This document shows positions 13,075 to 33,108 of a stretch of 38,079 bases of DNA, in pieces. Under the pieces are notes generated by a model, which searched no databases, had not been told where the DNA came from, and saw only the letters and a list, made by a program, of their open reading frames with translations. Position 1 is the stretch's first letter. The number at the start of each line of letters is the position of its first letter. The DNA comes from Verrucomicrobiia bacterium (GTDB taxonomy: Bacteria > Verrucomicrobiota > Verrucomicrobiia > Limisphaerales > DSYF01): NCBI GenBank assembly GCA_035765895.1, contig DASTWL010000043.1:1-38079 (forward strand). Direction: 5' to 3'. The position numbers were made by a program, and so were the translations under genes.

Positions 13075-14358
13075 TCAGTTGGCGGTTCCGGGCGGCCACA
13101 ATGTCTGGCCGATGTCCGTGCGATAATAGCTCCCGAGCACGCGAATCCGCCGGAGGTTGGCCCGGGATTTTTCCGCTGCGGCCGGCACGCTGGCGCCAAA
13201 AGCGATGACGTCCGCATAACGGTGCCCCGCCGTGACCAACTGGCCGTCGCGGCCGCGTTCGACTTCGTTCCACCACACGTCGCAATCGAACCGGCCGGTC
13301 ACCTCGATGGGAAAATGCGGGCCGCGCACCTGCAAATGCGGGTAGCCGTAGCCGGCCAGCGTGGTGGAACAGCCGAACGCCGCGTCCGCCCGGAAGCGCG
13401 GCGCCAACGGCAGGTTGCGCGCCGCCGCCCAGAGCGTTTCCAGCGGGTTTTCCAGCAGGCGCAAAATCATCGAGCCCGAAGTGATGCCGAGCCGGACATT
13501 GTATTCGATGACGTGCCATTTGCGCCCCACCATGCAGGCCGTGACCTGCACCGGTCCGTGATAGTTCACGCGTTTGAACCACCGCCGCAACGGGTGCAGC
13601 AAGGCGCGCGCGAGGCCGTATTTGTCCTCCGGATCCCGTTCCACAATGCCGCCCAGTGGCGCGCCGCAAACGATGCCGAGGTCGCCGACATGAGCGCGTT
13701 TGTATTCCTGATTGGTCACGAGCGGATAAATTTCGCCGGCGCTGACGAGCGCAATGTGGCCGGCCTCGGCGCGGCCCAGATATTCCTGCAAAAAGACACC
13801 CTCGGCATAATCCACGTGATCCAGCCACGCGCGCGTGTCGGCCACTGTCTCGCAAACGATCGTGTGCACCGGACTGCCGGGGGAGCACAGTGGATTCTTA
13901 ATGACGTAGGGCCGCGGATTTTTCTTCAACCATTCCAGGGCCGCGAGGCGATTGGGCGCCACGTGCGCGGCGGGAAAGGGAATTTTGCAATCGCGGCACA
14001 GCCGGCGGGCGTAATCTCGTTCGCGCTCGAGCAACAGGGCTTCACCGGTGGGACACAGGATGGGCACCTTGCTCGCGAGCAGTTCGGCGGCCCACGGTTG
14101 CTGCGCCCAGTCAATGGACTGTGGAAAAATCAGGTCCACCTTGCGCTGCTTGAGGAGCGGCACCGGATTGGGGTGGTCCGCGCAATCGAACGTTGGCCCG
14201 ACGAGCGACGGCGGAAAATGGCCGTTGCGGCGGGTCAGGTAGGTGGCTGTGGTGGCGCCCGCGTCGCGCAAAATTTGCGTCGAACTTTGGGCGAACGAAC
14301 CGATGCCAAAGGCCATGACGGACAGACCGCGTGGATGGTTTTTTGCTTTGCCGCGCAT
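13075..14358 (-). CDS. PurD-like ATP-grasp protein with degenerate active-site motifs
   Basis: 427 residues from the ATG at 14358; starts further upstream (to 14517) add unlikely sequence. Overall length and layout match phosphoribosylamine-glycine ligase (PurD): an N-domain starting GLSVMAFGIGSFAQ, an ATP-grasp core with FLQEYLGRAEAG (residues 189-200), VTNQEYKRAHVGD (214-226) and VIEYNVRLG (283-291), and a GARS C-domain ending VLGSYYRTDIGQTLWP. The key PurD motifs are changed. GxGGREHA is FGIGSFAQ (17-24). The GLAAGKGV nucleotide loop is NPLCSPGSPV (155-164). DxGPNTGGMG is DLGIVCGAPLGG. RFGDPETQ is RLGITSGS. The Mg2+ ligands Glu285 and Asn287 remain. It is probably a paralogue with another substrate or no ligase activity. 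Automated pipelines would likely name it purD. Confidence 0.7.
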   Translation of the reverse strand: MRGKAKNHPRGLSVMAFGIGSFAQSSTQILRDAGATTATYLTRRNGHFPPSLVGPTFDCADHPNPVPLLKQRKVDLIFPQSIDWAQQPWAAELLASKVPILCPTGEALLLERERDYARRLCRDCKIPFPAAHVAPNRLAALEWLKKNPRPYVIKNPLCSPGSPVHTIVCETVADTRAWLDHVDYAEGVFLQEYLGRAEAGHIALVSAGEIYPLVTNQEYKRAHVGDLGIVCGAPLGGIVERDPEDKYGLARALLHPLRRWFKRVNYHGPVQVTACMVGRKWHVIEYNVRLGITSGSMILRLLENPLETLWAAARNLPLAPRFRADAAFGCSTTLAGYGYPHLQVRGPHFPIEVTGRFDCDVWWNEVERGRDGQLVTAGHRYADVIAFGASVPAAAEKSRANLRRIRVLGSYYRTDIGQTLWPPGTAN

Positions 14359-14538
14359 AGAAAATGCGGGCTGAAAACGGACGGTTGGCGCGTGGTTCAA
14401 CCCGCCCGCGCAGCAAGCGGCAAAACGCCGGGCGGCGCAAGTGATTTGTGGCCGTTGCGAATTTTCCATTGCAGGAGGGCTATCACGGACATAGTTTCCA
14501 TTACAGGAAGCCGTCAAAACAACTTACCCCATACCACT
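14359..14538. promoter_or_regulatory. Divergent intergenic region with a tandem 16-mer
   Basis: This 180 bp region must hold the promoters of the PurD-like operon (-) and the GH42 gene (+). TTTCCATTGCAGGAGG at 14463-14478 and TTTCCATTACAGGAAG at 14495-14510 match at 14 of 16 positions. They are offset by 32 bp, about three helical turns. The second copy is an imperfect palindrome, TTCC-N6-GGAA. This is what a two-site operator looks like, but no regulator is known for it. No convincing -35/-10 pair was identified. Confidence 0.45.
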
Positions 14539-16638
14539 ATGTATTTTGGCGTCGATTATCATCCGGAGCAGTGGGTGTATCCCTACGGTGGCACCAAGGA
14601 GAATCCCGAATCGGAATGGGAAAATGATGTGGAGATGATGGCGGCCGCCGGCGTCAACGCGGTGCGTCTCGGCGAATTTGTCTGGGGTTTGTGCGAACGC
14701 GAACCGGGCAAGTATGATTTCGCGTGGCTGCGGCGCGTGATGGATTTGCTGGGCAAATCCGGCATCAAAATCATTCTCGCCACGCCGACGGCGGCCCCGC
14801 CGATCTGGATGGCGCGCAAACATCCGGAAATCCTGCCGATCGATGAAAACGGCCTCGTCAAACACGAAGGCACCCGGCGGGCCGTCTGCCTGAACAGCGA
14901 GGTGTTTTGGAACTACTCCCGCGCGATTGTCGAGAACATGGCCAAGGCGCTGGGCGATCACCCCGACCTCATCGCGTGGCAAATTGACAACGGCATCGGC
15001 GGCAATTTCACCGAGGCCTCCTTCAACGAGGACACCCGGCGCGACTGGCATCTGTGGCTCGAAGCCAAGTATGAGACGGTCGAAAAACTCAACGAACAAT
15101 TGGGCTTGCGCCATTGGGGGCAGGTGGTTTCCGACATCAAGCAGGTGCCCATGCCCATGAAGGCGCCGGCCGTGCACAACCCGGCGCTCGTGCTGGATTG
15201 GAACCGGTTTTGCAGCGATACGATCGTGCAGTTCATCAAGATGCAGGCAGACATCCTGCGGCCGCTGACGCCGAACTGCCCCATCACCACCAACCTGCGC
15301 GCCTTGCGTCATAAATTCGACCACTTCGACATGGCCGAGGTGCTCGACTTCGTCTCCATCGAAGGCACGGCCGCGGTCCGCGCGAATTCCGCGGAACTGG
15401 CCTGCGAGATGGACATGCTCCGGTCACTGAAAAAGGACGGAGTCCGGTCGCCCGACGGCGGCTGTGGTTTCTGGGTGATGGAACACAAGGCGGGCAACGT
15501 TTCCTGGCAGGACGTGAATTCCCTGGTGCGTCCCGGCGTGTTGCGGCTCTTCACCTACCAGCTCATTTCCCGGGGTGCGGATTCCATCCTGTTTTTCCGG
15601 TGGCGCCAGCCGCGGTTTGGCGCGGAGAAGTTCCATGGCGCCGTGGTGCCGCATGCGGCGCGCAAGAACGGCCGGGTTTACCGCGAGGTTAGTCAGATTG
15701 GCGAGGAACTGAAACTACTGGCGCCGGCGTTGCACGGGTCGAAGGTCAAACCGGAAGTCTGCATCCTTTACACGCACGACAACGACTGGACCCTGCAACT
15801 GCCGCAACAGCCGAACAAGTATTTCAACCTGCGCGAGCATATTCAGCTGTTTTACAGCGCATTTCACGACAAGAACATCGGCGTCGATTTTGCCCGGCCC
15901 ACGGAAGATTTGTCGCGTTACCGGCTGGTGATCGCACCGTCGCTGCAATTGCTCCGCGGCGCCGAGGCGGACATGATGAAGCTCTACGTCCAGAACGGCG
16001 GCACGCTGGTGGGGACGTTCAGCACCGGACTGGTGGACGAGCACCACATCGCGTCCGACAACGGCTATCCCCACGACCTGATGGACGTGTTTGGCCTGGA
16101 AGTCACCGAGTTCGACATGCTCCCACCGGGCGAGGAAAATCATCTGACGTTCAAGGGGGCCTTTCCGACCAGTCACCTGCATCCGGCCAAGCTGTGGTGC
16201 GATTTGATCGAGCCCAAGGAGTGCCAGGTGCTGGCGTCGTATTCGCGCGATTTCTACGCCGGCAAACCGGCCATGACGATGAACACCTTCGGCCTGGGCA
16301 AGGCGATTTACATCGGCACCCTGAGCCACCAGCACTTTTACTCGGATCTGGTCACCTGGCTGCGCCAGCTCTGCAATCTGCATCCGCTGCTCAAGGTTCC
16401 CGAAAGCGTGGAAGTCAGCATGCGCGAGAAGGAGGGCTCGCGGATTCATTTCCTGCTCAACCACAAACCCTCCTCAGTCCGGGTGCAATTCTACAAGCCC
16501 ATGCACGATCTGCTCACGGGATCCAGCATCGTGGGCAATCACGACCTGCCGCCGCACGGCGTGCTGGTGCTGGACGAGCGGGTTGAACCAAAACCTGAAG
16601 CGGCGCCCGTCACGGCGCAGGCACCAGTCGCGGCTTGA
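14539..16638 (+). CDS. Glycoside hydrolase family 42 (beta-galactosidase-like) lacking the acid/base Glu
   Basis: 699 residues from the ATG at 14539. The longer open frame back to 13222 is a shadow of the PurD-like gene. The start MYFGVDYHPEQWVYP, the (beta/alpha)8 barrel with GVNAVRLGEFVWGLCEREPG and ATPTAAPPIWMARKHPEILP, the trimerisation/Rossmann-like domain (CILYTHDNDW, NGGTLVGTFSTGLVDEHH) and the small C-terminal beta domain follow GH42 order and length. The nucleophile Glu315 is present (VMEHKAGNVSW). The acid/base position, normally Glu in W-x-x-DNE, is Gly152 (WQIDNGIGG, codon GGC at 14992-14994). There is no signal peptide, so it is cytoplasmic. The C-terminal tail is Pro/Ala-rich. 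Activity on beta-galactosides is doubtful without the acid/base residue. Confidence 0.88.
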   Translation: MYFGVDYHPEQWVYPYGGTKENPESEWENDVEMMAAAGVNAVRLGEFVWGLCEREPGKYDFAWLRRVMDLLGKSGIKIILATPTAAPPIWMARKHPEILPIDENGLVKHEGTRRAVCLNSEVFWNYSRAIVENMAKALGDHPDLIAWQIDNGIGGNFTEASFNEDTRRDWHLWLEAKYETVEKLNEQLGLRHWGQVVSDIKQVPMPMKAPAVHNPALVLDWNRFCSDTIVQFIKMQADILRPLTPNCPITTNLRALRHKFDHFDMAEVLDFVSIEGTAAVRANSAELACEMDMLRSLKKDGVRSPDGGCGFWVMEHKAGNVSWQDVNSLVRPGVLRLFTYQLISRGADSILFFRWRQPRFGAEKFHGAVVPHAARKNGRVYREVSQIGEELKLLAPALHGSKVKPEVCILYTHDNDWTLQLPQQPNKYFNLREHIQLFYSAFHDKNIGVDFARPTEDLSRYRLVIAPSLQLLRGAEADMMKLYVQNGGTLVGTFSTGLVDEHHIASDNGYPHDLMDVFGLEVTEFDMLPPGEENHLTFKGAFPTSHLHPAKLWCDLIEPKECQVLASYSRDFYAGKPAMTMNTFGLGKAIYIGTLSHQHFYSDLVTWLRQLCNLHPLLKVPESVEVSMREKEGSRIHFLLNHKPSSVRVQFYKPMHDLLTGSSIVGNHDLPPHGVLVLDERVEPKPEAAPVTAQAPVAA

Positions 16639-16691
16639 GCTTTGCTCCGCGCCGTGGCAAGAGGATACTCGCCGGGGTTGCCCGGACCGCG

Positions 16692-17111
16692 ATGATTCCG
16701 CTTCCTCCCAGACGCATACCGCCCTTGGGGCCGGGCAAACGCCCGGCGCGTCAACGGGTGCTGGCGCAATGGCGGGGAGTGGATCTCGTGCCGCTGGAGC
16801 GAGCGCAGGCGGATACCGCCAAATCTGCCGCCCAGGTGCTGCCCAAGGTGCTGCACGAACAATTGCGGCTGGGCCGTCGCCAGGCCGAGGCCGAAATCGT
16901 CAAAGTCTGGAATTCCCTGAAACTGCTGGACCCCGTTCTGATGGCGCACGGCCAGCCGACGGGCTTGAATCAAAACGGAACCCTGTTTGTGACCGTCAGC
17001 AACAGCGCGGCGCTCATGGAATTTAAATACCACCAGCGCAAGATCCTCGAACGCCTGCAACACAGCTTCGGCAAGGATCTGGTCGCGCGCATTTCGTTCC
17101 GGGTGGGCTGA
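16692..17111 (+). CDS. DciA/DUF721 family protein
   Basis: 139 residues from the ATG at 16692; a TTG at 16635 in the same frame overlaps the GH42 stop and is less likely. The C-terminal half fits DUF721: VKVWNSLKLLDPVLMAHGQP (W-x10-x-H), GTLFVTVSNSAALMEFKYHQ (L-V-V-S-x-W/A-x-EL) and ILERLQHSFGKDLVARISFR. DciA-type members load the replicative DnaB helicase in bacteria that lack DnaC. The role here is inferred from the family. The N-terminal 50 residues are basic and Pro-rich, as expected for the DNA- or helicase-contacting region. It is about 50 bp after GH42 and may be read through from it. Confidence 0.75.
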   Translation: MIPLPPRRIPPLGPGKRPARQRVLAQWRGVDLVPLERAQADTAKSAAQVLPKVLHEQLRLGRRQAEAEIVKVWNSLKLLDPVLMAHGQPTGLNQNGTLFVTVSNSAALMEFKYHQRKILERLQHSFGKDLVARISFRVG

Positions 17112-23550: not shown

Positions 23551-24804
23551 TTACTTTTCGCTCAATGCGGCCACGCCGGGCAGTTCGATGCCTTCCAGAA
23601 ACTCCAAGCTGGCGCCGCCGCCGGTGCTCATGAAGGTGACCTTGTCCGCGAGGCCAGATTTGTTGATGGCCTTCACGCTGTCGCCGCCGCCAATGATGCT
23701 CGTGGCGCCCTTTTGCGTTGCTTCCGCCACGGCCGCCGCGACGGCATTGGTGCCCACCGCGAAGCGTTTGTCTTCAAAAATGCCCATCGGGCCGTTCCAC
23801 AGGATGGTTTTTGCGCCGAGCAACACATCCTTGAACTGGGCGGCGGTGGCGGGGCCGATGTCCACGCCTTCTTCCGTGTCCGGGATGTTCGGTTCGGTGT
23901 TCACCCGCGGATTGGTCAAATCCATGACCGGCCGGCCCTTCTTGTCGAGCTTGTCGGTTTTGACCGGTGTTACGCAGGTGTTGTCGGTGGGCAGCAGGAA
24001 CTGCACGCCGCGCTGCTTGGCCTTGGCCAGCGCCGCGAGCGCCACGTCGGTTTTGTCCTTTTCCACAAGCGACAAACCCACCTTGGCGCCCTGGGCCAGT
24101 TTGAAGGTGTAGGCCATCGCGCCGCCAATCAAAATCGTGTCCGCCTTTTCCAGCAGCCGGTCGATGACTTTGATTTTGTCCGAAACTTTGGCGCCGCCGA
24201 GAATCACGACGAAGGGGCGGGCGGGTTTTTCCAGTTCATCGCCGAGGAACTTCAGTTCACGTTCCATCAACAAGCCTGCGGCGCATTTCCCGCCGCGCTT
24301 TGCCACCACACGGGCCACGCCTTCGGTGGAGGCGTGCGCACGGTGCGCCGAACCGAACGCGTCGTTCACATAAACCTCGGCGACTTTGGCCATCTTTTCC
24401 GCGAACGCGGGATCGTTGGCCTCCTCTTCGTTGTAGTAACGGACGTTCTCGAGCAGCAGAATGTCGCCTTCCTTCAACGCTGCGGCGGTCTGCTCGACTT
24501 TCTCGCCGATGCAATCATCCACGAACGCGACGGGCCGGAGGATCATGTCGGCGAGCTTCGCGGCCACCGGGCGCAGGGACATGGAGGGCTCCTTCTTGCC
24601 CTTTGGCCGGCCGAGGTGCGCGGCGAGAATGATTTTGGCCCCCTTTTCGATCAACAGCTTGAGCGTCGGCAGGGTCTCCTTGATGCGCGTCGTGTCGTTG
24701 ATGACCATCTGGCCATCCTTCTCCTCCATTGGGACGTTGTAATCCACCCGGACGAACACGCGTTTGCCACGCAAATCAAGGTCGCGAACTGTGAGCTTTG
24801 CCAT
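23551..24804 (-). CDS. pgk: Phosphoglycerate kinase
   Basis: 417 residues from the ATG at 24804 (MAKLTVRDLDLRGKRVFVRV); the frame extends to 24885 but the family starts here. Substrate motifs RVDYNVP and AAHLGRPKG, LLLENVRYYNEEE, NDAFGSAHRAHAST, and the nucleotide-binding VVILGGAKVSDKI and IIGGGDSVKAI followed by STGGGASLEFLEG are all intact. It transfers phosphate from 1,3-bisphosphoglycerate to ADP. It is the first gene of pgk-tpiA-secG. Confidence 0.97.
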   Translation of the reverse strand: MAKLTVRDLDLRGKRVFVRVDYNVPMEEKDGQMVINDTTRIKETLPTLKLLIEKGAKIILAAHLGRPKGKKEPSMSLRPVAAKLADMILRPVAFVDDCIGEKVEQTAAALKEGDILLLENVRYYNEEEANDPAFAEKMAKVAEVYVNDAFGSAHRAHASTEGVARVVAKRGGKCAAGLLMERELKFLGDELEKPARPFVVILGGAKVSDKIKVIDRLLEKADTILIGGAMAYTFKLAQGAKVGLSLVEKDKTDVALAALAKAKQRGVQFLLPTDNTCVTPVKTDKLDKKGRPVMDLTNPRVNTEPNIPDTEEGVDIGPATAAQFKDVLLGAKTILWNGPMGIFEDKRFAVGTNAVAAAVAEATQKGATSIIGGGDSVKAINKSGLADKVTFMSTGGGASLEFLEGIELPGVAALSEK

Positions 24805-24831
24805 ATCAGGAATCGATTTCAGGTTCAGGTC

Positions 24832-24923: not shown

Positions 24924-26168
24924 TCATGCGGGGATTAGCGTGCCATCGCGGCGCAGCTTCATGCGGCGGCCGCGCCATTCGATGGTGTTCCCGAGAAACG
25001 CCAGCAGCCACACGCCGACCTGCAGGACGTCCTTGAACGGCGCCAGCCAGCAGTAACGGACAATCGGCGGGCGGTCGGCCGCGGCGTCCGATTCCGGCCG
25101 ATCACCGGCCAGCCGCCGTTGCAGGTCAGCCGTGACCATGAGGCGCACCAAGAACGCTGTGCCCAGGAAGCCGAGCGCCGTCCGCGTGCCGCTCACCGCC
25201 GCCCACAGCGCCGGCCAGAGCGTGGGATTGCTCAACAGACTGAAAAAATAAGGCACCGGCTGGCACACCCGGATGGTGCGGGCCCAGCGCAATTGATGTT
25301 TCCAGACCGCGGCCCAGCCGGCGGGCGCATCCCAACATTCCACCACCACCGGACTGAGCGCGATGCGCCCACCCCGTTGCGCGATGCGATGTCCAAGCTG
25401 GTAGTCGTCCGCCAAACAATCCTTGATGGCCGCAAAACCGCCCAGGCCGGCCAGTTCGCCACGCCGGGTCAGCATCACGGCCCCCAACGCGAAATCCATC
25501 GGCTTGAGCGAAACCGATTGCAGCACCTGGCTCCAGAAATCGGCATTGATGGCCACGGCTTCGCAGTGCATGGCCAGCGTGGCAGGATTGGCCAGCCGAT
25601 AAAAACAGTTCAACAGCGCGACAGGCGCGGCGGCCGGTGTGGGCGAAGGGCCGAATGCGGCGACGGCGTCGGCCAAAAAATCCGGCGGCACGCACACGTC
25701 CGCGTCGCTCACGCAAATCAATTCATGCTCGGCGAGCTGCTCCAACTGAATCAGCTTGGACACCTTGGCGTTTGCGCCCGCCCGGGCGTCACAAACAACC
25801 AGCTGTGCGGTCGTGCGGGGATGTTCCGCCATGAGCCGCTGCACGAGGGCGCAGGCCGGATCGCTGGCGTCGGCCACGCCGAAAAGCGCCTGGACCGGGC
25901 CGGAGTAAGCTTGTTGCAGCCAGCTGCGCAGACATTTTTCCGTATGAGCATCGGCGCCTTTCAGTGGTTTCAACAGCGTGACGCCGGGGTGGGGAGCCGC
26001 TGCCGCCGCATCTTGCGTCCCGAAAGCCAGCGCGGGTTGCACGCGGCGCTGATGCAGCGGAAAGCGGCGCGCCGCCAGCCATTGCCAGAGCAACAGCAGG
26101 AGACTCAGTGCCGCGAGCGCCCCGAAGATGCCGTTTAAAACCACGCCGCTAGCTAGCGTTCGCGCCAC
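24924..26168 (-). CDS. Glycosyltransferase, GT21 / ceramide glucosyltransferase or HpnI-like
   Basis: 414 residues using GTG at 26168; another GTG at 26144 is equally plausible and no ATG is available. An N-terminal membrane helix (IFGALAALSLLLLLWQWLAA) is followed by a GT-A domain: GVTLLKPLKGAD, ELICVSDADVCVPPDFL (DxD metal site), FALGAVMLTRRGELAGLGGF, CLADDYQLGHRIA (second Asp site), and HQLRWARTIR (the (Q/R)xxRW motif of processive and GT21 enzymes). Two or three further membrane segments lie at the C-terminus. This layout matches ceramide glucosyltransferases and the hopanoid N-acetylglucosaminyl transferase HpnI. Without hpn neighbours the lipid acceptor is undecided. Confidence 0.8.
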   Translation of the reverse strand: MARTLASGVVLNGIFGALAALSLLLLLWQWLAARRFPLHQRRVQPALAFGTQDAAAAAPHPGVTLLKPLKGADAHTEKCLRSWLQQAYSGPVQALFGVADASDPACALVQRLMAEHPRTTAQLVVCDARAGANAKVSKLIQLEQLAEHELICVSDADVCVPPDFLADAVAAFGPSPTPAAAPVALLNCFYRLANPATLAMHCEAVAINADFWSQVLQSVSLKPMDFALGAVMLTRRGELAGLGGFAAIKDCLADDYQLGHRIAQRGGRIALSPVVVECWDAPAGWAAVWKHQLRWARTIRVCQPVPYFFSLLSNPTLWPALWAAVSGTRTALGFLGTAFLVRLMVTADLQRRLAGDRPESDAAADRPPIVRYCWLAPFKDVLQVGVWLLAFLGNTIEWRGRRMKLRRDGTLIPA

Positions 26169-26501: not shown

Positions 26502-27830
26502 TTATTTCGCGGTTGATGGGGTTGGACTTTGGCGAGCTTGCTCGCGTGGTGGCAGCTCCTTGGAAAAGGGCAGCTCGCCGCGCAACAATGCCCCCGCGCG
26601 GCCGGTCAACCACAAATAATAATCCGCGGGCAGCCCTTCGTAATTGAGAAAGCTTGCGCCCGTGGGCGTCGCATTGCTGCACTTGAAAATGGCCGTCCCT
26701 TCGTCCATTTCGTCAAACATCGCAACGTAGAGCATGCGCGCGCCAGCCTCCTTCGCGGCGGTGATTTGGTTCCAATAGAACCGGCCTTTTTGGCGGGGGA
26801 TCTGATTGATCGGATTGGCGCCGCCGAACTCGGTTTTGCTCAAATTGAACCAGCTGAACCCCGGATAAACGCACGGCGCGTAGTCCAAATGTCGTTCGGC
26901 GCACCACGCAAGATCGGCCTTCAACTGGGCCAGATAGCGCGTCCGTTCCGCCGGCTGCATCGTTGAATAACGGCCGACCATCCACGGCAGCACCACGTCG
27001 GCGGACTCAATGAGTTGGTGCAAGTAAGGATCCGCCACGCAATCGCGTTGCAACGTTCGAAAATAGGTCGGCACGCCCAGCAGCACGGCGCAACCGCCGT
27101 ATTCCGGATCGTCCTTCAGAAAGGCGATCAGTTTCTCCACGCCGATCTGGTGGATGTTGTAGGGACGATCCGGGAAACCGAGCCCCCAAATGGCCACGAG
27201 CGGTTTACCGCGGTGGTAAAGGTAGGTTTGATTCGTGCCCTGACGGGTCAGCTTGAGCTGGTCCACGAGTTCCTTCCAATCCGTGATGATGGACGAGCAA
27301 TCCTCGGCCGGGGCGTTGAGGCCAGACAGGTCATACATGACGGCGATGGCGCGGTGATATTTTTGGGATGCAGCCAGCGCGTGCTCCAAAACCACGCGGC
27401 TCTGGCGCCGCCGCGGCTCGGTGCGGGTCGCCTCGAAGAAGCGTTGCACAAACACCCCATCAATGCCGTAGTCCCGCAGCCAGCGAAAATGAACGTCCAC
27501 CGTGCTCGCATCCCACGAACTGAACACGCGTGCCGGCTGGCCGTTGGACAGCACGAACGGTGTGGGATACGTATCCGGGTATTCGCGGGTGTCCGGCCAG
27601 TAATCGATGTGCAGGTGGTTCGTGTCGAACTTGCCGCCGACACCGAAATGAACCCAACCCTCATGGGATCCGTCACCAGCCGCGCGAAACCACCCTTGGT
27701 AGCCGCACATCACCCGACCGGCATAACTTGGGAAGGCGGAGCCCGGACTGTGCCGGCTTGCGGCCGCCCCTGCGGTGCCTGCGCATAACAAGGCGATCAG
27801 CCACCCGGCAACGTATCGTTTGATGATCAT
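26502..27830 (-). CDS. Exported glycoside hydrolase, GH71/99-like
   Basis: 442 residues with a signal peptide (MIIKRYVAGWLIALLCAGTAGA). The body begins RVMCGYQGWFRAAGDGSHEGW, continues with YWPDTREYPDTYPTPFVLSNG, and has RVFSSWDASTVDVHFRWLRD then YGIDGVFVQRFF, which I recognise as the GH71/99-like (endo-alpha-mannosidase/alpha-1,3-glucanase related) barrel common in Planctomycetes and Verrucomicrobia. Later motifs are GKPLVAIWGLGFPDRPYN, YAPCVYPGFSWFNL and MLYVAMFDEMDEGTAIFK, where Asp/Glu of FDEMDEGT may be functional. The substrate is probably an alpha-mannan or alpha-glucan but this is not shown. It is isolated, reading towards tRNA-Arg and away from the beta-glucan block. Confidence 0.75.
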   Translation of the reverse strand: MIIKRYVAGWLIALLCAGTAGAAASRHSPGSAFPSYAGRVMCGYQGWFRAAGDGSHEGWVHFGVGGKFDTNHLHIDYWPDTREYPDTYPTPFVLSNGQPARVFSSWDASTVDVHFRWLRDYGIDGVFVQRFFEATRTEPRRRQSRVVLEHALAASQKYHRAIAVMYDLSGLNAPAEDCSSIITDWKELVDQLKLTRQGTNQTYLYHRGKPLVAIWGLGFPDRPYNIHQIGVEKLIAFLKDDPEYGGCAVLLGVPTYFRTLQRDCVADPYLHQLIESADVVLPWMVGRYSTMQPAERTRYLAQLKADLAWCAERHLDYAPCVYPGFSWFNLSKTEFGGANPINQIPRQKGRFYWNQITAAKEAGARMLYVAMFDEMDEGTAIFKCSNATPTGASFLNYEGLPADYYLWLTGRAGALLRGELPFSKELPPREQARQSPTPSTAK

Positions 27831-28060
27831 GGGAATGGTTCATTCAGCGCACTTCGGCAACGGCCTCGTCTCTGGATTAACCCCGTTTTCCATGCCTGAC
27901 GCGCGGCGATTTGGCAAGGCGCACGCGCCGGCAACGGTGGTTTTGCGGGCGCTGCGACGGGCGGTCTGATGCCTTTCCCAACAGGATGCGTGTTGTGAGG
28001 CGCCCGTTTTTTCCCAGCTCGGCAAAACTTTTTTGCGCGACTGATGTTGAATGCTAAGTT

Positions 28061-28236
28061 GGCAGGTCGCCCGCAGGGGCAGGATTCCCCGCGGAATCGT
28101 TCTTTAAGTTTTTGCTTTCGCTGTCGGTTTATAGTTCAGGGCCGGTGGCGAAGTTCTACGAAACCTGCGATTGAACTCATCGAAAACTCCCCGGGCTGGT
28201 GGGCCACCCTCTGGCAAACCAGCCCGGTTATTTTTT
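28061..28236 (+). ncRNA. Candidate small RNA ending in a strong terminator
   Basis: The terminator at 28191-28236 has no coding gene upstream on its strand; the gene before it is on the minus strand. The stretch from about 28061 contains GATTCC-CCGC-GGAATC (28083-28098), GCCC-GCAG-GGGC (28069-28080) and the long-range pair AGTTCA/TGAACT (28133-28138 with 28172-28177). TATAGT at 28130-28135 could be a -10 for a shorter RNA of about 95 nt starting near 28141. Alternatively TTGCGC at 28033 with TAAGTT at 28055 gives a transcript of about 175 nt. Neither promoter is strong. It matches no RNA family I can name (not tmRNA, SRP or RNase P by motif). The 5' end is a guess. Confidence 0.4.
28191..28236 (+). 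terminator. Strong rho-independent terminator without an upstream CDS
   Basis: A 10-bp perfect stem CCGGGCTGGT/ACCAGCCCGG (28191-28200 with 28218-28227) is followed by TTATTTTTT. The 17-nt loop contains GGCCACCC. Confidence 0.88.
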
Positions 28237-28315
28237 GCGGCCTTCCGGACGCCCTTTAACTACCTCCTCTCCGCCGCGCCAAATCCGTAATTCGTGATGC
28301 TATGTAAAATTGTAG

Positions 28316-28353
28316 TTGACGCAGCATTTATTATGTAATACAAAACATTACAT
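28316..28353 (+). promoter_or_regulatory. Putative promoter with overlapping palindrome, upstream of the Ig/CBM gene
   Basis: TTGACG (28316-28321), 17 bp, TACAAA (28339-28344). A perfect 7-bp inverted repeat ATGTAAT/ATTACAT (28333-28339 with 28347-28353, 7 bp apart) covers the -10 and probable start. The 10-mer TGTAATACAA (28334-28343) recurs at the GH3 promoter. Confidence 0.5.
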
Positions 28354-28380
28354 CCCATTCAAAATGTGACGCGATGGCGG

Positions 28381-28399
28381 CACTGCCTCGGAGGCAGTG
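28381..28399 (+). promoter_or_regulatory. Leader hairpin upstream of the Ig/CBM gene
   Basis: Perfect 8-bp stem CACTGCCT/AGGCAGTG with CGG loop, no T-tract. It would lie in the 5' untranslated region, about 30 nt from the inferred start of transcription, and may affect mRNA stability or translation. Confidence 0.4.
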
Positions 28400-28495
28400 G
28401 CAGTCTTCGCACTAGCGAAACAATGTCGCAATGACTGGAACCTTTCGCCCAAAGCCAGCATTGGCCGGGCGGATTCAACAACAAACCCAGACCCC

Positions 28496-30499
28496 ATGAA
28501 AACCCGAATGAAGCATCTCGCGCTGATGGTCTTGGCCGCGGCCGCCTTTTGCGGCGGAACGGCCCAGATGAATGCCCAAGTCTCCGTCAAGGTTGATTCA
28601 ACCCTGCCGTGGGCGGGGTTCGTAAATGTGTGGCAAACCGATGGCACCAGTTATGTCTTTGGCAGCGCATGGGGAACAGCTGACCTGCGGGCTGCGTTCA
28701 TCCCGACGAACAGCCCGTCGGGCTGGCCATTGAACAACGGACTTGTGTTGCAGGCCAACACCGGAACCTACAACACCAACGACGTGTTTTGGAACAATCC
28801 GGACGGAACGTGCAACAAGGTGCTGGAGGCCAATTTCTACCGCGATGTGGGCACCGCCTTTGCCGGCCAGACGGTGACGTTTACCGGCACGGTGGTTTCC
28901 AACAATTTGCCTGCGCCGTCCGGCGGTGCCGTCACGGGTTGGGAGTGCGTTGCCTTCATCAAGGAGTTCACGTCAACCTACGGTTTTGTGGGCATCACGA
29001 CCGTGCCGCTGACGCCCGGGTCGTTTACCGTTTCCATGCCCATCGGCGCCGGCCATGTCGCGCAATATGGCTTCTACGTGAAGGGGCCAAATGTCGCGCC
29101 GAATTCGGCCGATGCGCTCCGCAGCGTGGGCATTTTGGTCGAGGACGCAGATCCGGCGATTACCAGCCAGCCGAAGGATGTGACGATGACCACCGGCAAC
29201 ACCACAAATCTGAGCGTGACCGCGATTGGCAGCTCAACCTTGAGCTATCAATGGGCGACCAACGGCGTGCCGCTGCTGAACGGGGCGAAGTATTCGGGCG
29301 TCAGCACCCCCACGCTGACCATTGCCAACGCGCAGGTGGCTGACAGCGGATCCTATGTGGTCACCGTTTCCGACACGGCCGGCTCGGTCGATTCCCGCGC
29401 GGCAGTGGTGAATGTTTTGGATATTCTGATCACCAACAATCCGGTCAGCCAGCGGGTGGAGCAGAACTCGACGGTGGTTTTCAGCGTGGGTGCAACCAGC
29501 CCCTCGGCCTTGAGCTACCAGTGGAGTTCGGTAATTGGCGGCGTGACGAATGCGCTGACCGACGGCGCGACGGTTTCGGGCGCGACTTCGTCCGCGCTGA
29601 CTCTTTCCAACGTGCAGGTGGCCGCCAGCGGCACCTACTTTGTCACGATCTCGACCGGCTCCGGATCGGCGAGCACGGGGGCGTCGCTTGTGGTGAAGTC
29701 CTTCACGGATTTCTCCAATTTCCTCGAAAATCCCGGCTTCGAAACGGGAACGGATAATCCGTGGGTGCGGTTTTCGTCGAGTGATCCGAGCTTTGGCCAT
29801 TTGCAAACCACGGCCGACACCTACTTCGGCGGCGGCAATGTCAATGTTTACGAAGGCACCTACGTCAGCTACACGACCTTCAATGGCGATTACTCCGGCA
29901 TTTATCAGGACGTGCCGACCCAGCCCGGCCAGATCTTTGCGGCCGACTTCTGGGTTTACAACGCCAGCGGCGATCCGATCCCCGGACCGTCCATGAATGC
30001 GTCGAACGAAATCTATCTGGAGATCCAGTTCCGGGCGGGCGACGCCGGCACGCCGCTGCAGCAATTCGTGAGTCCCATTCTGAACTACACCGCTCCCTTG
30101 AACACGTGGCTGGATTTGCAGGCGACCAACGCCGGCACTTACGGCTCATTGCCGCCCGGGGTGAACGGCCGTTATCTCATCGCGCCGCCCGGCACCACCA
30201 AGGTGCGCTTCCAGCTCACCATGCACGACCTCGGCGGAAGCGTGGGCGCGGGCTCGCTTTACTACGACAGCGCGAAGTTGATGCTGAAGATTCCGGCCAC
30301 GCTCGGCGCCAGCATGACGGGCACGGATGCGGCATTGTCCTGGAAATCGCAGGGGGCAACCAGCTACCAGGTCCAATACAAGGACACGCTCGACGGCGCC
30401 TGGCAGAACCTCGAAGTCGTCCCGGGAACCGGCTCGGTGATCACCAAGTCCTATCCCGCCACGGGCAACCAGCGCTTTTACCGGGTGCTGACGTTGTGA
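28496..30499 (+). CDS. Exported Ig-like/carbohydrate-binding multidomain protein
   Basis: 667 residues from the ATG at 28496 (MKTRMKHLALMVLAAAAF, signal peptide ending near AQMNAQ). An N-terminal beta domain of about 190 residues (TLPWAGFVNVWQTDGTSYVF) is followed by two Ig-like repeats: about 219-305 (ITSQPKDVTMTTGNTTNLSV, LTIANAQVADSGSYVVTVSD) and about 306-395 (ITNNPVSQRVEQNSTVVFSV, LTLSNVQVAASGTYFVTIST). About 400-570 is a CBM-like jelly roll starting FLENPGFETGTDNPWVRF, with YSGIYQDVPTQPGQIFAADF. The C-terminal roughly 80 residues end in QRFYRVLTL, a module also found in the GH16 protein at 31483. No catalytic motif was seen. It is likely a secreted or surface glycan-binding protein heading the beta-glucan block. 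Confidence 0.8.
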   Translation: MKTRMKHLALMVLAAAAFCGGTAQMNAQVSVKVDSTLPWAGFVNVWQTDGTSYVFGSAWGTADLRAAFIPTNSPSGWPLNNGLVLQANTGTYNTNDVFWNNPDGTCNKVLEANFYRDVGTAFAGQTVTFTGTVVSNNLPAPSGGAVTGWECVAFIKEFTSTYGFVGITTVPLTPGSFTVSMPIGAGHVAQYGFYVKGPNVAPNSADALRSVGILVEDADPAITSQPKDVTMTTGNTTNLSVTAIGSSTLSYQWATNGVPLLNGAKYSGVSTPTLTIANAQVADSGSYVVTVSDTAGSVDSRAAVVNVLDILITNNPVSQRVEQNSTVVFSVGATSPSALSYQWSSVIGGVTNALTDGATVSGATSSALTLSNVQVAASGTYFVTISTGSGSASTGASLVVKSFTDFSNFLENPGFETGTDNPWVRFSSSDPSFGHLQTTADTYFGGGNVNVYEGTYVSYTTFNGDYSGIYQDVPTQPGQIFAADFWVYNASGDPIPGPSMNASNEIYLEIQFRAGDAGTPLQQFVSPILNYTAPLNTWLDLQATNAGTYGSLPPGVNGRYLIAPPGTTKVRFQLTMHDLGGSVGAGSLYYDSAKLMLKIPATLGASMTGTDAALSWKSQGATSYQVQYKDTLDGAWQNLEVVPGTGSVITKSYPATGNQRFYRVLTL

Positions 30500-30515
30500 C
30501 CTCAGTCCGGCGTGC

Positions 30516-30544
30516 CCTCAAGGCCGGCTGGTCCGGCCTTGAGG
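30516..30544 (+). terminator. Perfect hairpin between the Ig/CBM and pseudopilin genes, no T-tract
   Basis: 12-bp perfect stem CCTCAAGGCCGG/CCGGCCTTGAGG (30516-30527 with 30533-30544) with a 5-nt loop. It is followed by AACCCGGC, not by T residues, so it may be a 3'-end stabiliser or processing site and not a terminator. Confidence 0.35.
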
Positions 30545-30595
30545 AACCCGGCAAACATCCGGGACGTCCCGGCGATACGACAAAGGAAAGTGTTT

Positions 30596-31444
30596 ATGAA
30601 GAAAGAAGCCATCCAGCAGACCGATGCGGCCAAATCAGCGCGCGCCGGACTGCGGCCGGGCACCAGGGGTTTTACGCTGATCGAATTGCTGGTGGTGATT
30701 GCCATCATCGCCATTCTGGCCGCCATGCTTCTGCCCGCCTTGAGCAAGGCCAAGGCGAAGGCGCAAGGCATCAGCTGCCTGAACAACCTCAAACAATTGC
30801 AGTTGGGCTGGCTGCTGTATTCCGGCGACAACGATGACAAGGTCGTCCGCACTGGCGGGCTCGCGGTGCTTGCACTCGACCCGCTGGATCCGCTGGCGCA
30901 ACCCGGCGGCAGCAAATCCCAGTGGGTGCTGGGCAGCGTGGCCGACACCGAGCCGGCCGCTGCCACCAACGAAATGCTCATCAAAAACGGCCTGCTGTTT
31001 CCGTTCATCAACAGCCTCAAAGTTTACAAGTGCCCGGCCGACAAGAAGACCGTTGCCGGCGGCCCGACAGTGCGCAGCATGTCCATGAACGCGTGGATGA
31101 ATCCCATTCAGGATGAAGGCCAGTTGGACACGGTCAATTACACCGTTTTCCGACGGCAGGCGAACATCCGGAATCCAGCAAATACGTGGGTGACCATCGA
31201 CGAAAATCCGAACAGCATCAACGACGGCTGGTTTTTGGTGCGACCCAACGTGCCGACCGTCTGGCGCGACGTGCCGGCTGCGTATCACAACAATGCCGGC
31301 GGCATGTCATTTGCCGACGGACATGCGGAAATCAAACGTTGGACCGACAACGCGGTCATCTCTCAGGCGGGTTCTTACGCACGCAAGGATCCCAACTCGC
31401 GCGATCTGGACTGGCTGATCGAGCGCACCACTGTGCATAATTGA
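30596..31444 (+). CDS. Type II secretion-like pseudopilin, H-X9-DG type
   Basis: 282 residues from the ATG at 30596. It is preceded by AAAGGAAAG at about 8 nt, one of the few good Shine-Dalgarno sites in this window. The prepilin signal is [20 protein letters not shown], with cleavage after Gly25, Phe26 at +1 and Glu30 at +5, then [16 protein letters not shown] and [20 protein letters not shown], the Verrucomicrobia/Planctomycetes/Lentisphaerae-type pattern. [12 protein letters not shown] fits the H-X9-DG motif of the processing-associated family exactly. Such proteins occur in very many copies in these phyla, with unknown function. Its place between a glycan-binding protein and a GH16 enzyme suggests a role in surface display or export of glycan-degrading proteins, which is an inference. 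Confidence 0.88.
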
Positions 31445-31482
31445 GCGGCGGCCGCCGTCGGCGCCCATTTCCCGAATCCGTG

Positions 31483-33108
31483 ATGAATCTGTTCCGTTTT
31501 GCATCTGCTCAAGCGCCGCTCCGGCGGCCTTTGAACCTCCTCCTCTGCGGCGCCGCCGCGCTGTTCTGCGTGGCTGCCACCGCGCAGCCCAAGACCGGCT
31601 GGACGCTGGTCTGGTCGGATGAATTCTCCGGCGCGGATGGCAGTTCGCCCGATTCAACCAAGTGGGGTTTTGACACCGGCGGCAGCGGCTGGGGCAACAA
31701 TGAGCTGGAGTATTACACCACGCGCACCAACAACGCCCGCATCGAGAACGGGCACCTGGTCATCGAGGCGCGGCAGGAGAGCTACGGCGGGCGGGATTAC
31801 ACCTCGGCCCGTTTGCTGACGCGCGGCAAGTGGTCCTGGACCTACGGCCGGATGGAAGCGCGCATCAAGATTCCCCGCGGCCAGGGCATCTGGCCGGCCT
31901 TCTGGATGCTGGGCACGAACATCGACTCCGTTGGCTGGCCCACGTGCGGCGAAATCGACATCATGGAGAACATCGGGAAGGAGCCCGGCACCATTCATGG
32001 CACGCTCCACGGACCGGGTTATTCCGGTGGCAACGGCATCGGCGGTCCGTCTACGCTGCCGGGCGGTGCGGCATTCGCGGACGACTTCCACCTGTTTGCC
32101 ATCGAATGGCAGACCAACCACATCCGCTGGCTCGTCGATGGGCAGGAATATTTTTCAGTGTCGCCCGCGAACCTGCCCGGCGGCACGCAATGGGTGTTCA
32201 ACCGCCCGCAGTTCCTGCTGCTGAACCTGGCCGTGGGCGGCAACTGGCCGGGGAATCCGGACGCCACGACCACGTTTCCGCAGCAGATGGTGGTGGATTA
32301 CGTGCGGGTTTACGCGCCGACGACGGTGACGAGTTGCACCGGAAATCTGCTGACCAACCCCGGCTTTGAAAGCGGCAATCTGGCGGGCTGGACCGCCTAC
32401 GGTTCGGGCGGCAACACGTTTGTCGCCCCCACCAACTCGCTGCCCGCACACACCGGCGGCGACGTGTTCAAGGTTTACGGCCAGTTCACGGGCGGCGCCA
32501 ATTATTCCGGCGTTTACCAGGATGTGCTCGTGACGCCCGGTGCCAATTACATGGCGGACGGCTGGGCGCTGACGCCCAATGGCGACAACCTGGCCGGAGG
32601 CAATTTGGCCTGGCTCGAAGTCACCTTCCGGAACGATGCCGACACACTGTTGAGCCTTTATCGTTCGGAGGCACTGGACGCCAGCACCACGCCCGGACTC
32701 TGGCAGCATCTGTTGGTGACCAATCAATTCGATCCCGCAACATATGCGCGCGTGGGCGCGGTGAGCGATCTGGTCGCGCCGCCGGGGGCGACGAAGGCGC
32801 GCTGTCAAATCGTCTTCCAGCAACCGCTCACCGCGGCCGGCGCGGCTTTGTTTGATGACCTCAACCTGGCCACCCCGGACTCGTCGGAAGCGACCGTCGC
32901 CATTCAAGCGGCCCAAAGCGGCCCAAACCTCACCCTTTCGTTCCCGACGCTGTTCGGCCTGAATTATGCCGTGCGTTTCAAACGCGATCTAGGCGATGAC
33001 ACCTGGCTGACGTTGACCAACGTGCCAGGCGACGGCTCCGTGAAAACGGTGGCTGACCTGCTCGGCGACGAGCGCCGTTTCTATCGCGTCGTGCCGTTGT
33101 GCAACTGA
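31483..33108 (+). CDS. GH16 endo-beta-glucanase (laminarinase-like) with C-terminal binding modules
   Basis: 541 residues from the ATG at 31483; signal peptide LLLCGAAALFCVAATAQ. The GH16 domain spans about 40-280: WTLVWSDEFSGADGSSPDST, WGNNELEYYTTRTNN, YGRMEARIKIPRGQGIWPAF and the catalytic GEIDIMEN with nucleophile Glu157, Asp159 and acid/base Glu162. The motif lacks the kappa-carrageenase pattern and fits beta-1,3- or mixed-linkage glucanases. About 283-440 is a CBM-like jelly roll (LLTNPGFESGNLAGW, YSGVYQDVLVTPGANY). The last 80 residues end RRFYRVVPL, the same module as in the protein at 28496. Extracellular endo-cleavage of beta-glucan is expected. It lies 38 bp after the pseudopilin gene. 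Confidence 0.92.
   Translation: MNLFRFASAQAPLRRPLNLLLCGAAALFCVAATAQPKTGWTLVWSDEFSGADGSSPDSTKWGFDTGGSGWGNNELEYYTTRTNNARIENGHLVIEARQESYGGRDYTSARLLTRGKWSWTYGRMEARIKIPRGQGIWPAFWMLGTNIDSVGWPTCGEIDIMENIGKEPGTIHGTLHGPGYSGGNGIGGPSTLPGGAAFADDFHLFAIEWQTNHIRWLVDGQEYFSVSPANLPGGTQWVFNRPQFLLLNLAVGGNWPGNPDATTTFPQQMVVDYVRVYAPTTVTSCTGNLLTNPGFESGNLAGWTAYGSGGNTFVAPTNSLPAHTGGDVFKVYGQFTGGANYSGVYQDVLVTPGANYMADGWALTPNGDNLAGGNLAWLEVTFRNDADTLLSLYRSEALDASTTPGLWQHLLVTNQFDPATYARVGAVSDLVAPPGATKARCQIVFQQPLTAAGAALFDDLNLATPDSSEATVAIQAAQSGPNLTLSFPTLFGLNYAVRFKRDLGDDTWLTLTNVPGDGSVKTVADLLGDERRFYRVVPLCN

What the first reader, a model, noticed from the sequence alone, without database searches (positions are those of the whole stretch)
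14980..15003. GH42 protein with the acid/base Glu replaced by Gly
In GH42 the acid/base Glu follows Asp-Asn in W-x-x-DNE (Glu141 in the Thermus A4 enzyme, from memory). Here the codon at 14992-14994 is GGC, giving WQIDNGIGG, while the nucleophile Glu315 (VMEHKAGNVSW) and the rest of the fold are intact. Loss of only the acid/base is known to turn retaining glycosidases into poor hydrolases that can still act on activated substrates or use an external base (for example plant myrosinases in GH1). The protein could be a transglycosidase, a lyase-like enzyme or a sensor, and it sits in a locus that is not a sugar-utilisation cluster.
Basis: partly seen in the sequence, partly recalled or inferred. 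Interest (0 to 1): 0.7.

Follow-up and report, generated by a model that had tools for sequence, protein, structure and literature searches.

The report
Order-wide GH42 without its acid catalyst
A sugar-cutting enzyme of the GH42 family lost one of its two essential catalytic residues once, in an ancestor of a whole order of soil and lake bacteria, and has since been kept almost as strictly as a core metabolic enzyme, so it probably does a different, still unknown job.

Summary
The window encodes a full-length GH42-type protein (14539-16638 +, 699 aa; Pfam E 5e-116; AlphaFold model matches GH42 crystal structures, Z 36-40). The acid/base position, codon 14992-14994, is Gly. It is not an error: none of 120 distinct orthologues from the order (Verrucomicrobia subdivision 3, Limisphaerales/Pedosphaera) has Glu there (Gly 81, Ser 29, Asn 5, Ala 4, Pro 1), whereas 32 of 32 other GH42 proteins do. 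A tree needs one loss, on the stem of a 100%-supported clade. The gene is in 202 of 320 genomes of the order and was seen nowhere else in the phylum sample. It is as conserved as phosphoglycerate kinase in most of the same genomes and has dN/dS of 0.03-0.08. The nucleophile Glu315 never changes, but the catalytic Tyr and galactose-contacting Asn and His also drift, so more than the acid/base has been lost. Best reading: a repurposed GH42 trimer that keeps a ligand pocket but is no ordinary beta-galactosidase, most likely a binding or regulatory pseudo-glycosidase. A nucleophile-only enzyme for activated or thio substrates is not excluded. No activity can be shown by computation.

The parts
14539..16638 (+). 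GH42-type protein, 699 aa, no signal peptide apparent
   Evidence: ORF; Pfam PF02449 E 4.7e-116, PF08532, PF08533; homologues align from residue 1 and Met1 is invariant
14554..15714 (+). TIM-barrel catalytic domain (PF02449)
   Evidence: residues 6-392
15754..16362 (+). GH42 trimerisation domain (PF08532)
   Evidence: residues 406-608
16408..16575 (+). GH42 C-terminal domain (PF08533)
   Evidence: residues 624-679, E 1.1e-5
14992..14994 (+). codon 152 GGC (Gly) at the acid/base position
   Evidence: alignments; G/S/N/A/P in 120 of 120 clade members, E in 32 of 32 others
15481..15483 (+). codon 315 GAA, nucleophile Glu, invariant
   Evidence: 120/120 and 32/32; no change on the tree
15487..15489 (+). 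codon 317 AAG (Lys), clade-specific residue two after the nucleophile
   Evidence: 119 of 120 Lys in clade, 0 of 32 elsewhere
15367..15369 (+). codon 277 (Thr) at the position of the catalytic Tyr (Tyr287 in BiBga42A)
   Evidence: Tyr in 19 and Phe in 4 of 120 in clade; Tyr or Phe in 32 of 32 others; role of Tyr287 from PMC10688820
   Evidence: 112 of 120 Glu, otherwise A/Q/D/V/H/L
16635..17111 (+). dciA-like gene (PF05258) directly downstream, overlapping the GH42 stop codon as called here
   Evidence: dciA is downstream of the GH42 gene in 37 of 76 loci that have enough flank

Best explanation
This is an ancient repurposed GH42 protein. Shown: one ancestor of the order lost the acid/base Glu; the gene was then inherited mostly vertically as a single copy under strong purifying selection; the nucleophile, part of the sugar pocket and the trimer-domain architecture were kept, while the Tyr, Asn and His that GH42 enzymes use on galactose drifted. 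Inferred: it is not an ordinary beta-galactosidase. It most likely acts in the cytoplasm as a homotrimer that binds a sugar-like ligand in the old pocket (Arg113, Glu315, Lys317, Trp323, Phe353, Glu363) and transmits that binding to a partner, that is, a sensing or scaffolding pseudo-glycosidase. The partner and ligand are unknown.
For: Acid/base Glu in 0 of 120 clade members and 32 of 32 others. One E to non-E change on two trees, clade support 100. 202 of 320 genomes of the order, 92 of 118 genera; no hit above about 38% identity in the rest of the phylum sample. Amino-acid identity matches PGK in most of the same genomes (73-77% against 75-78%). dN/dS 0.03-0.08. Glu315 and Arg113 invariant, Lys317 newly fixed; Tyr277, Asn151 and His366 drift. 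In BiBga42A, E160A cuts kcat on pNP-Gal 170-fold and Y287F cuts kcat 80-170-fold (PMC10688820). Clade-specific invariant residues are spread over all three domains rather than concentrated at the barrel mouth (10 of 162 against 10 of 207 positions, p 0.65), as expected for constraint on surfaces and assembly. The fold is intact. A conserved neighbour in several families is dciA, not sugar genes.
Against: The nucleophile has not changed in 120 sequences, which is stricter than binding alone needs. Position 152 takes only small residues (G, S, A, N, P) in about 15 changes inside the clade, although Asp, Val, Arg, Cys and Thr are one base away; that looks like selection for a cavity, perhaps for a substrate. 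No partner, ligand or phenotype is known. The trimer was not modelled.
Confidence: 0.5

Rival explanations
1. A working enzyme that uses only the nucleophile. Glu315 forms a glycosyl-enzyme with substrates that need no acid (thioglycosides, glycosyl phosphates, other good leaving groups), and a small acceptor or ion enters the cavity left by the missing Glu, so the net reaction is transfer, phosphorolysis or thio-ligation.
For: Glu315 120/120 with no changes on the tree, and only small residues at 152; Lys317 newly fixed beside the nucleophile could hold an anion; Arg113, Glu363 and Trp323 kept. General knowledge: acid/base mutants of retaining glycosidases act as thioglycoligases, and plant myrosinases lack the acid/base Glu.
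Against: The Tyr that is important for the chemistry in BiBga42A is lost in 101 of 120 (97 if Phe counts as kept), and the Asn and His that contact galactose drift. No thiol, phosphate or sugar-activation gene is a constant neighbour.
Confidence: 0.33
2. Ordinary glycosidase whose acid/base has moved to another residue, for example Glu159 in the loop after strand 4, or Asp150.
For: Glu159 in 112 of 120 and Asp150 in 117 of 120; the loop is remodelled relative to other GH42 proteins.
Against: Glu159 is Ala, Val, Leu, His, Gln or Asp in 8 otherwise well-conserved orthologues. Asp150 is also present in 5 of 32 proteins with a normal Glu, so it is not a substitute. Loss of the Tyr argues against an intact galactosidase site. 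The loop is modelled at pLDDT about 57.
Confidence: 0.1
3. Decaying gene or sequencing/assembly artefact.
For: The comparison genomes of the order are nearly all draft or metagenome-assembled.
Against: 115 representatives below 95% identity all lack Glu; dN/dS 0.03-0.08; full-length matches in most of the 202 genomes.
Confidence: 0.01

Closest known systems
GH42 beta-galactosidases (3tts Bacillus circulans subsp. alkalophilus; Gan42B; Thermus A4; BiBga42A)
   Same: Three-domain architecture, fold (Z 36-40), nucleophile Glu, Arg, Trp, Phe and Glu of subsite -1
   Different: Acid/base Glu absent, catalytic Tyr mostly absent, Asn and His contacts drifting; order-wide single copy; not in a sugar-utilisation cluster
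Plant myrosinases (GH1)
   Same: A retaining-glycosidase fold without the acid/base Glu and with the nucleophile kept (general knowledge)
   Different: Different family; myrosinases have Gln there and use ascorbate as external base; here the residue is G/S/N/A/P and never Gln
Klotho KL1/KL2 domains and other pseudo-glycosidases
   Same: Glycosidase fold with a catalytic Glu lost, used for binding rather than hydrolysis (general knowledge)
   Different: Klotho is an animal GH1-like co-receptor; this is a bacterial GH42-type protein with no known partner
IaSGT beta-1,2-glucosyltransferase of Ignavibacterium album (GH35; 7vkx)
   Same: Same three-domain fold (Z 28.8), and an example of a beta-galactosidase-family protein with a different activity (PMC8861115 abstract)
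   Different: 16% identity; its active-site residues were not compared here

Membership tests
GH42 (sequence and fold family) | Glyco_hydro_42 + 42M + 42C domains | tested here: met
   all above Pfam cut-offs
GH42 (sequence and fold family) | GH42 fold | tested here: met
   AlphaFold pLDDT 84, pTM 0.89; 3tts Z 40.4, 654 residues, 1.9 A; all top 16 entries are GH42
Catalytically competent GH42 beta-galactosidase | Nucleophile Glu on strand 7 | tested here: met
   Glu315, 120/120
Catalytically competent GH42 beta-galactosidase | Acid/base Glu after Asn on strand 4 | tested here: not met
   Gly152; no Glu in 120 clade members
Catalytically competent GH42 beta-galactosidase | Tyr equivalent to Tyr287 of BiBga42A | tested here: not met
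   Thr277 here; Tyr in 19 of 120; role from PMC10688820
Catalytically competent GH42 beta-galactosidase | Homotrimer with Trp from the neighbouring subunit | tested here: inconclusive
   Trp193 kept in 114 of 120 and 42M domain present; oligomer not modelled
Catalytically competent GH42 beta-galactosidase | Hydrolysis of beta-galactosides | not testable with these tools
   needs purified protein
Pseudoenzyme (definition in PMC10211241) | Lacks conserved catalytic motif by sequence | tested here: met
Pseudoenzyme (definition in PMC10211241) | Function is non-catalytic | not testable with these tools
   no assay
Myrosinase-like (GH1) | Gln in place of acid/base Glu | tested here: not met
   never Gln at 152

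The most novel reading that the evidence does not exclude
A natural nucleophile-only glycosyl-transferring enzyme (thioglycoligase- or phosphorylase-like) derived from GH42 and used in central physiology across a bacterial order, with a cavity in place of the acid/base catalyst.
Probability: 0.15. Interest if true: 0.85.

Novelty: new variant of a known kind. Interest (0 to 1): 0.58.

Why it matters
Glycosidase genes usually come and go between bacteria. This one lost a catalytic residue once, deep in an order, and has since been kept about as strictly as a glycolytic enzyme. Automatic annotation is likely to call it beta-galactosidase in hundreds of Verrucomicrobia genomes and inflate their apparent sugar-degrading capacity. 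It also offers a natural experiment with over 100 sequences on what a glycosidase fold can do with the nucleophile but no acid/base.

Tried and rejected
Sequencing error or strain mutation: rejected. Glu159 as relocated acid/base: weakened by 8 exceptions. An HpnI-like GT21 glycosyltransferase lies 23-32 bases downstream in many loci, but it is found across the order independently of the GH42 gene, and the adjacency is mostly one genus-level group, so I do not treat it as a partner. A response regulator plus AsmA/DUF748-like gene upstream (25 of 75 loci), with a GH57 branching enzyme and a DUF4912 protein, is confined to some sub-clades. Plasmid GH42 genes: best 38.6% identity; of four fetched, three show the N-E motif by text search and all four align with Glu. 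Literature searches found no report of a GH42 family lacking the acid/base; most subscription papers are not held. A first tally contained four sequences read on the wrong strand; one search replaces it, while the entropy and invariant-residue test still used the earlier set. Atomic coordinates of the model were not available, so side-chain positions could not be examined.

Full report
Observation. The ORF begins at ATG 14539 and ends at 16638 (699 aa). The open frame extends further upstream, but homologues align from residue 1 and Met1 is invariant in the alignment, so 14539 is the likely start. Pfam assigns all three GH42 domains. In alignments to solved GH42 enzymes, Gly152 (codon 14992-14994, GGC) sits where the others have the acid/base Glu. 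The nucleophile is Glu315, at 15481-15483.

Conservation. The order holds 320 sampled genomes, of which 202 have the gene, nearly always as one copy at 63-84% identity to the window where listed. In the phylum sample, apart from members of the order, the best full-length hits are at about 37-38%. Named records place the family in Pedosphaera, Limisphaerales and Verrucomicrobia subdivision 3. In 120 distinct clade sequences (115 representatives at a 95% identity cut) residue 152 is Gly 81, Ser 29, Asn 5, Ala 4, Pro 1 and never Glu; in 32 other GH42 proteins it is always Glu. A tree of 79 proteins makes the clade one side of a branch with support 100, on a stem of 0.87 changes per column, and needs one change from Glu to non-Glu. 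A tree of all 152 sequences agrees.

Constraint. Close pairs give dN/dS of 0.03-0.08. In four genomes of the same or another family (G002, G255, G262, G260) this protein is 73-77% identical to the window copy while PGK is 75-78%; for alanine racemase, three of these give 61-64% and no match was reported in G260. The comparison with PGK holds for the shared PGK lineage only, because some genomes carry a second PGK at 48-50%. No other strong GH42 exists in the window's genome; the remaining PF02449 hits are weak partial matches to large ORFs.

Active site. The mapping uses BiBga42A (PMC10688820) and is by alignment and residue spacing, not by superposed coordinates. Kept: Arg121=Arg113 (120/120), Glu318=Glu315 (120/120), Trp326=Trp323 (116), Phe356=Phe353 (107, Tyr 12), Glu366=Glu363 (118), neighbour Trp200=Trp193 (114). 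Changed: Glu160=Gly152; Tyr287=Thr277 (Tyr in 19); Asn159=Asn151 (Ser 15); His369=His366 (Tyr 64, His 47); Asp285=Glu275 (Glu 65, Asp 46). New: Lys317 (119/120), Gln148 and Asn163 (120/120 each). In BiBga42A the E160A and Y287F changes each cut kcat about 100-fold, so ordinary beta-galactosidase activity is expected to be very low. This is an expectation, not a measurement.

What the pattern says. Two features point in different directions. Loss of Tyr, Asn and His with a spread of clade-specific invariants over all domains suits a protein whose job is binding and assembly. An unchanging nucleophile and a position 152 that takes only small residues over about 15 changes suits a pocket still shaped for a ligand or substrate. 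I put the binding/regulatory reading first at 0.5 and a nucleophile-only enzyme second at 0.33.

Structure. AlphaFold2 with 55 sequences (window plus orthologues) gave mean pLDDT 84.4 and pTM 0.89; the loop at 151-160 is weak (about 57). The 16 best PDB entries are all GH42, Z 36.5-40.4; the next group is the Ignavibacterium beta-1,2-glucosyltransferase at Z 28.8.

Surroundings. In the window the gene lies between a divergent PurD-like ATP-grasp gene and a dciA-like gene. The GH42-dciA order is seen in 37 of 76 loci and on both sides of the deepest split of the midpoint-rooted tree, so it is probably ancestral (inference). Other sub-clades have a response regulator and an AsmA/DUF748-like gene upstream and an HpnI-like glycosyltransferase downstream. 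None is constant enough to name a partner. Three of the four plasmid GH42 genes fetched lie beside an arabinogalactan endo-galactosidase (GH53-type) or sugar-transport gene, the fourth beside a nucleoside hydrolase.

Limits. Nearly all comparison genomes within the order are drafts; other phyla were sampled only through plasmids; the literature search covers open-access papers only; no activity, ligand or partner was tested.

Noticed in passing
window 23551-24807 (-): Two phosphoglycerate kinase lineages exist in the order: the window copy is 74-85% identical to most members but only 48-50% to a same-genus genome (G001) and to several genomes of family f55, which suggests replacement of a core glycolytic gene.
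   Followed up: no
window 13075-14517 (-): PurD-like ATP-grasp protein that scores far below the purD cut-off (92 against 288 bits); probably a paralogue with another substrate.
   Followed up: no
window 24924-26168 (-): HpnI-like GT21 glycosyltransferase, below the HpnI cut-off (273 against 310 bits); orthologues lie directly downstream of the GH42 gene in one group of the order.
   Followed up: partly
window 26502-33108: GH99-like secreted protein, Ig-domain protein and GH16 enzyme: polysaccharide-related genes about 10-16 kb from the GH42 gene.
   Followed up: no
L128, L138, L139: Records titled Akkermansia muciniphila or Methylacidimicrobium carry 66-71% identical orthologues and fall inside the clade; the organism names of these metagenome bins are probably wrong.
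   Followed up: no
L079, L086, L090 and other loci: Recurring block of GH57 branching enzyme and DUF4912 protein divergent from a response regulator and AsmA/DUF748-like gene next to the GH42 gene.
   Followed up: partly
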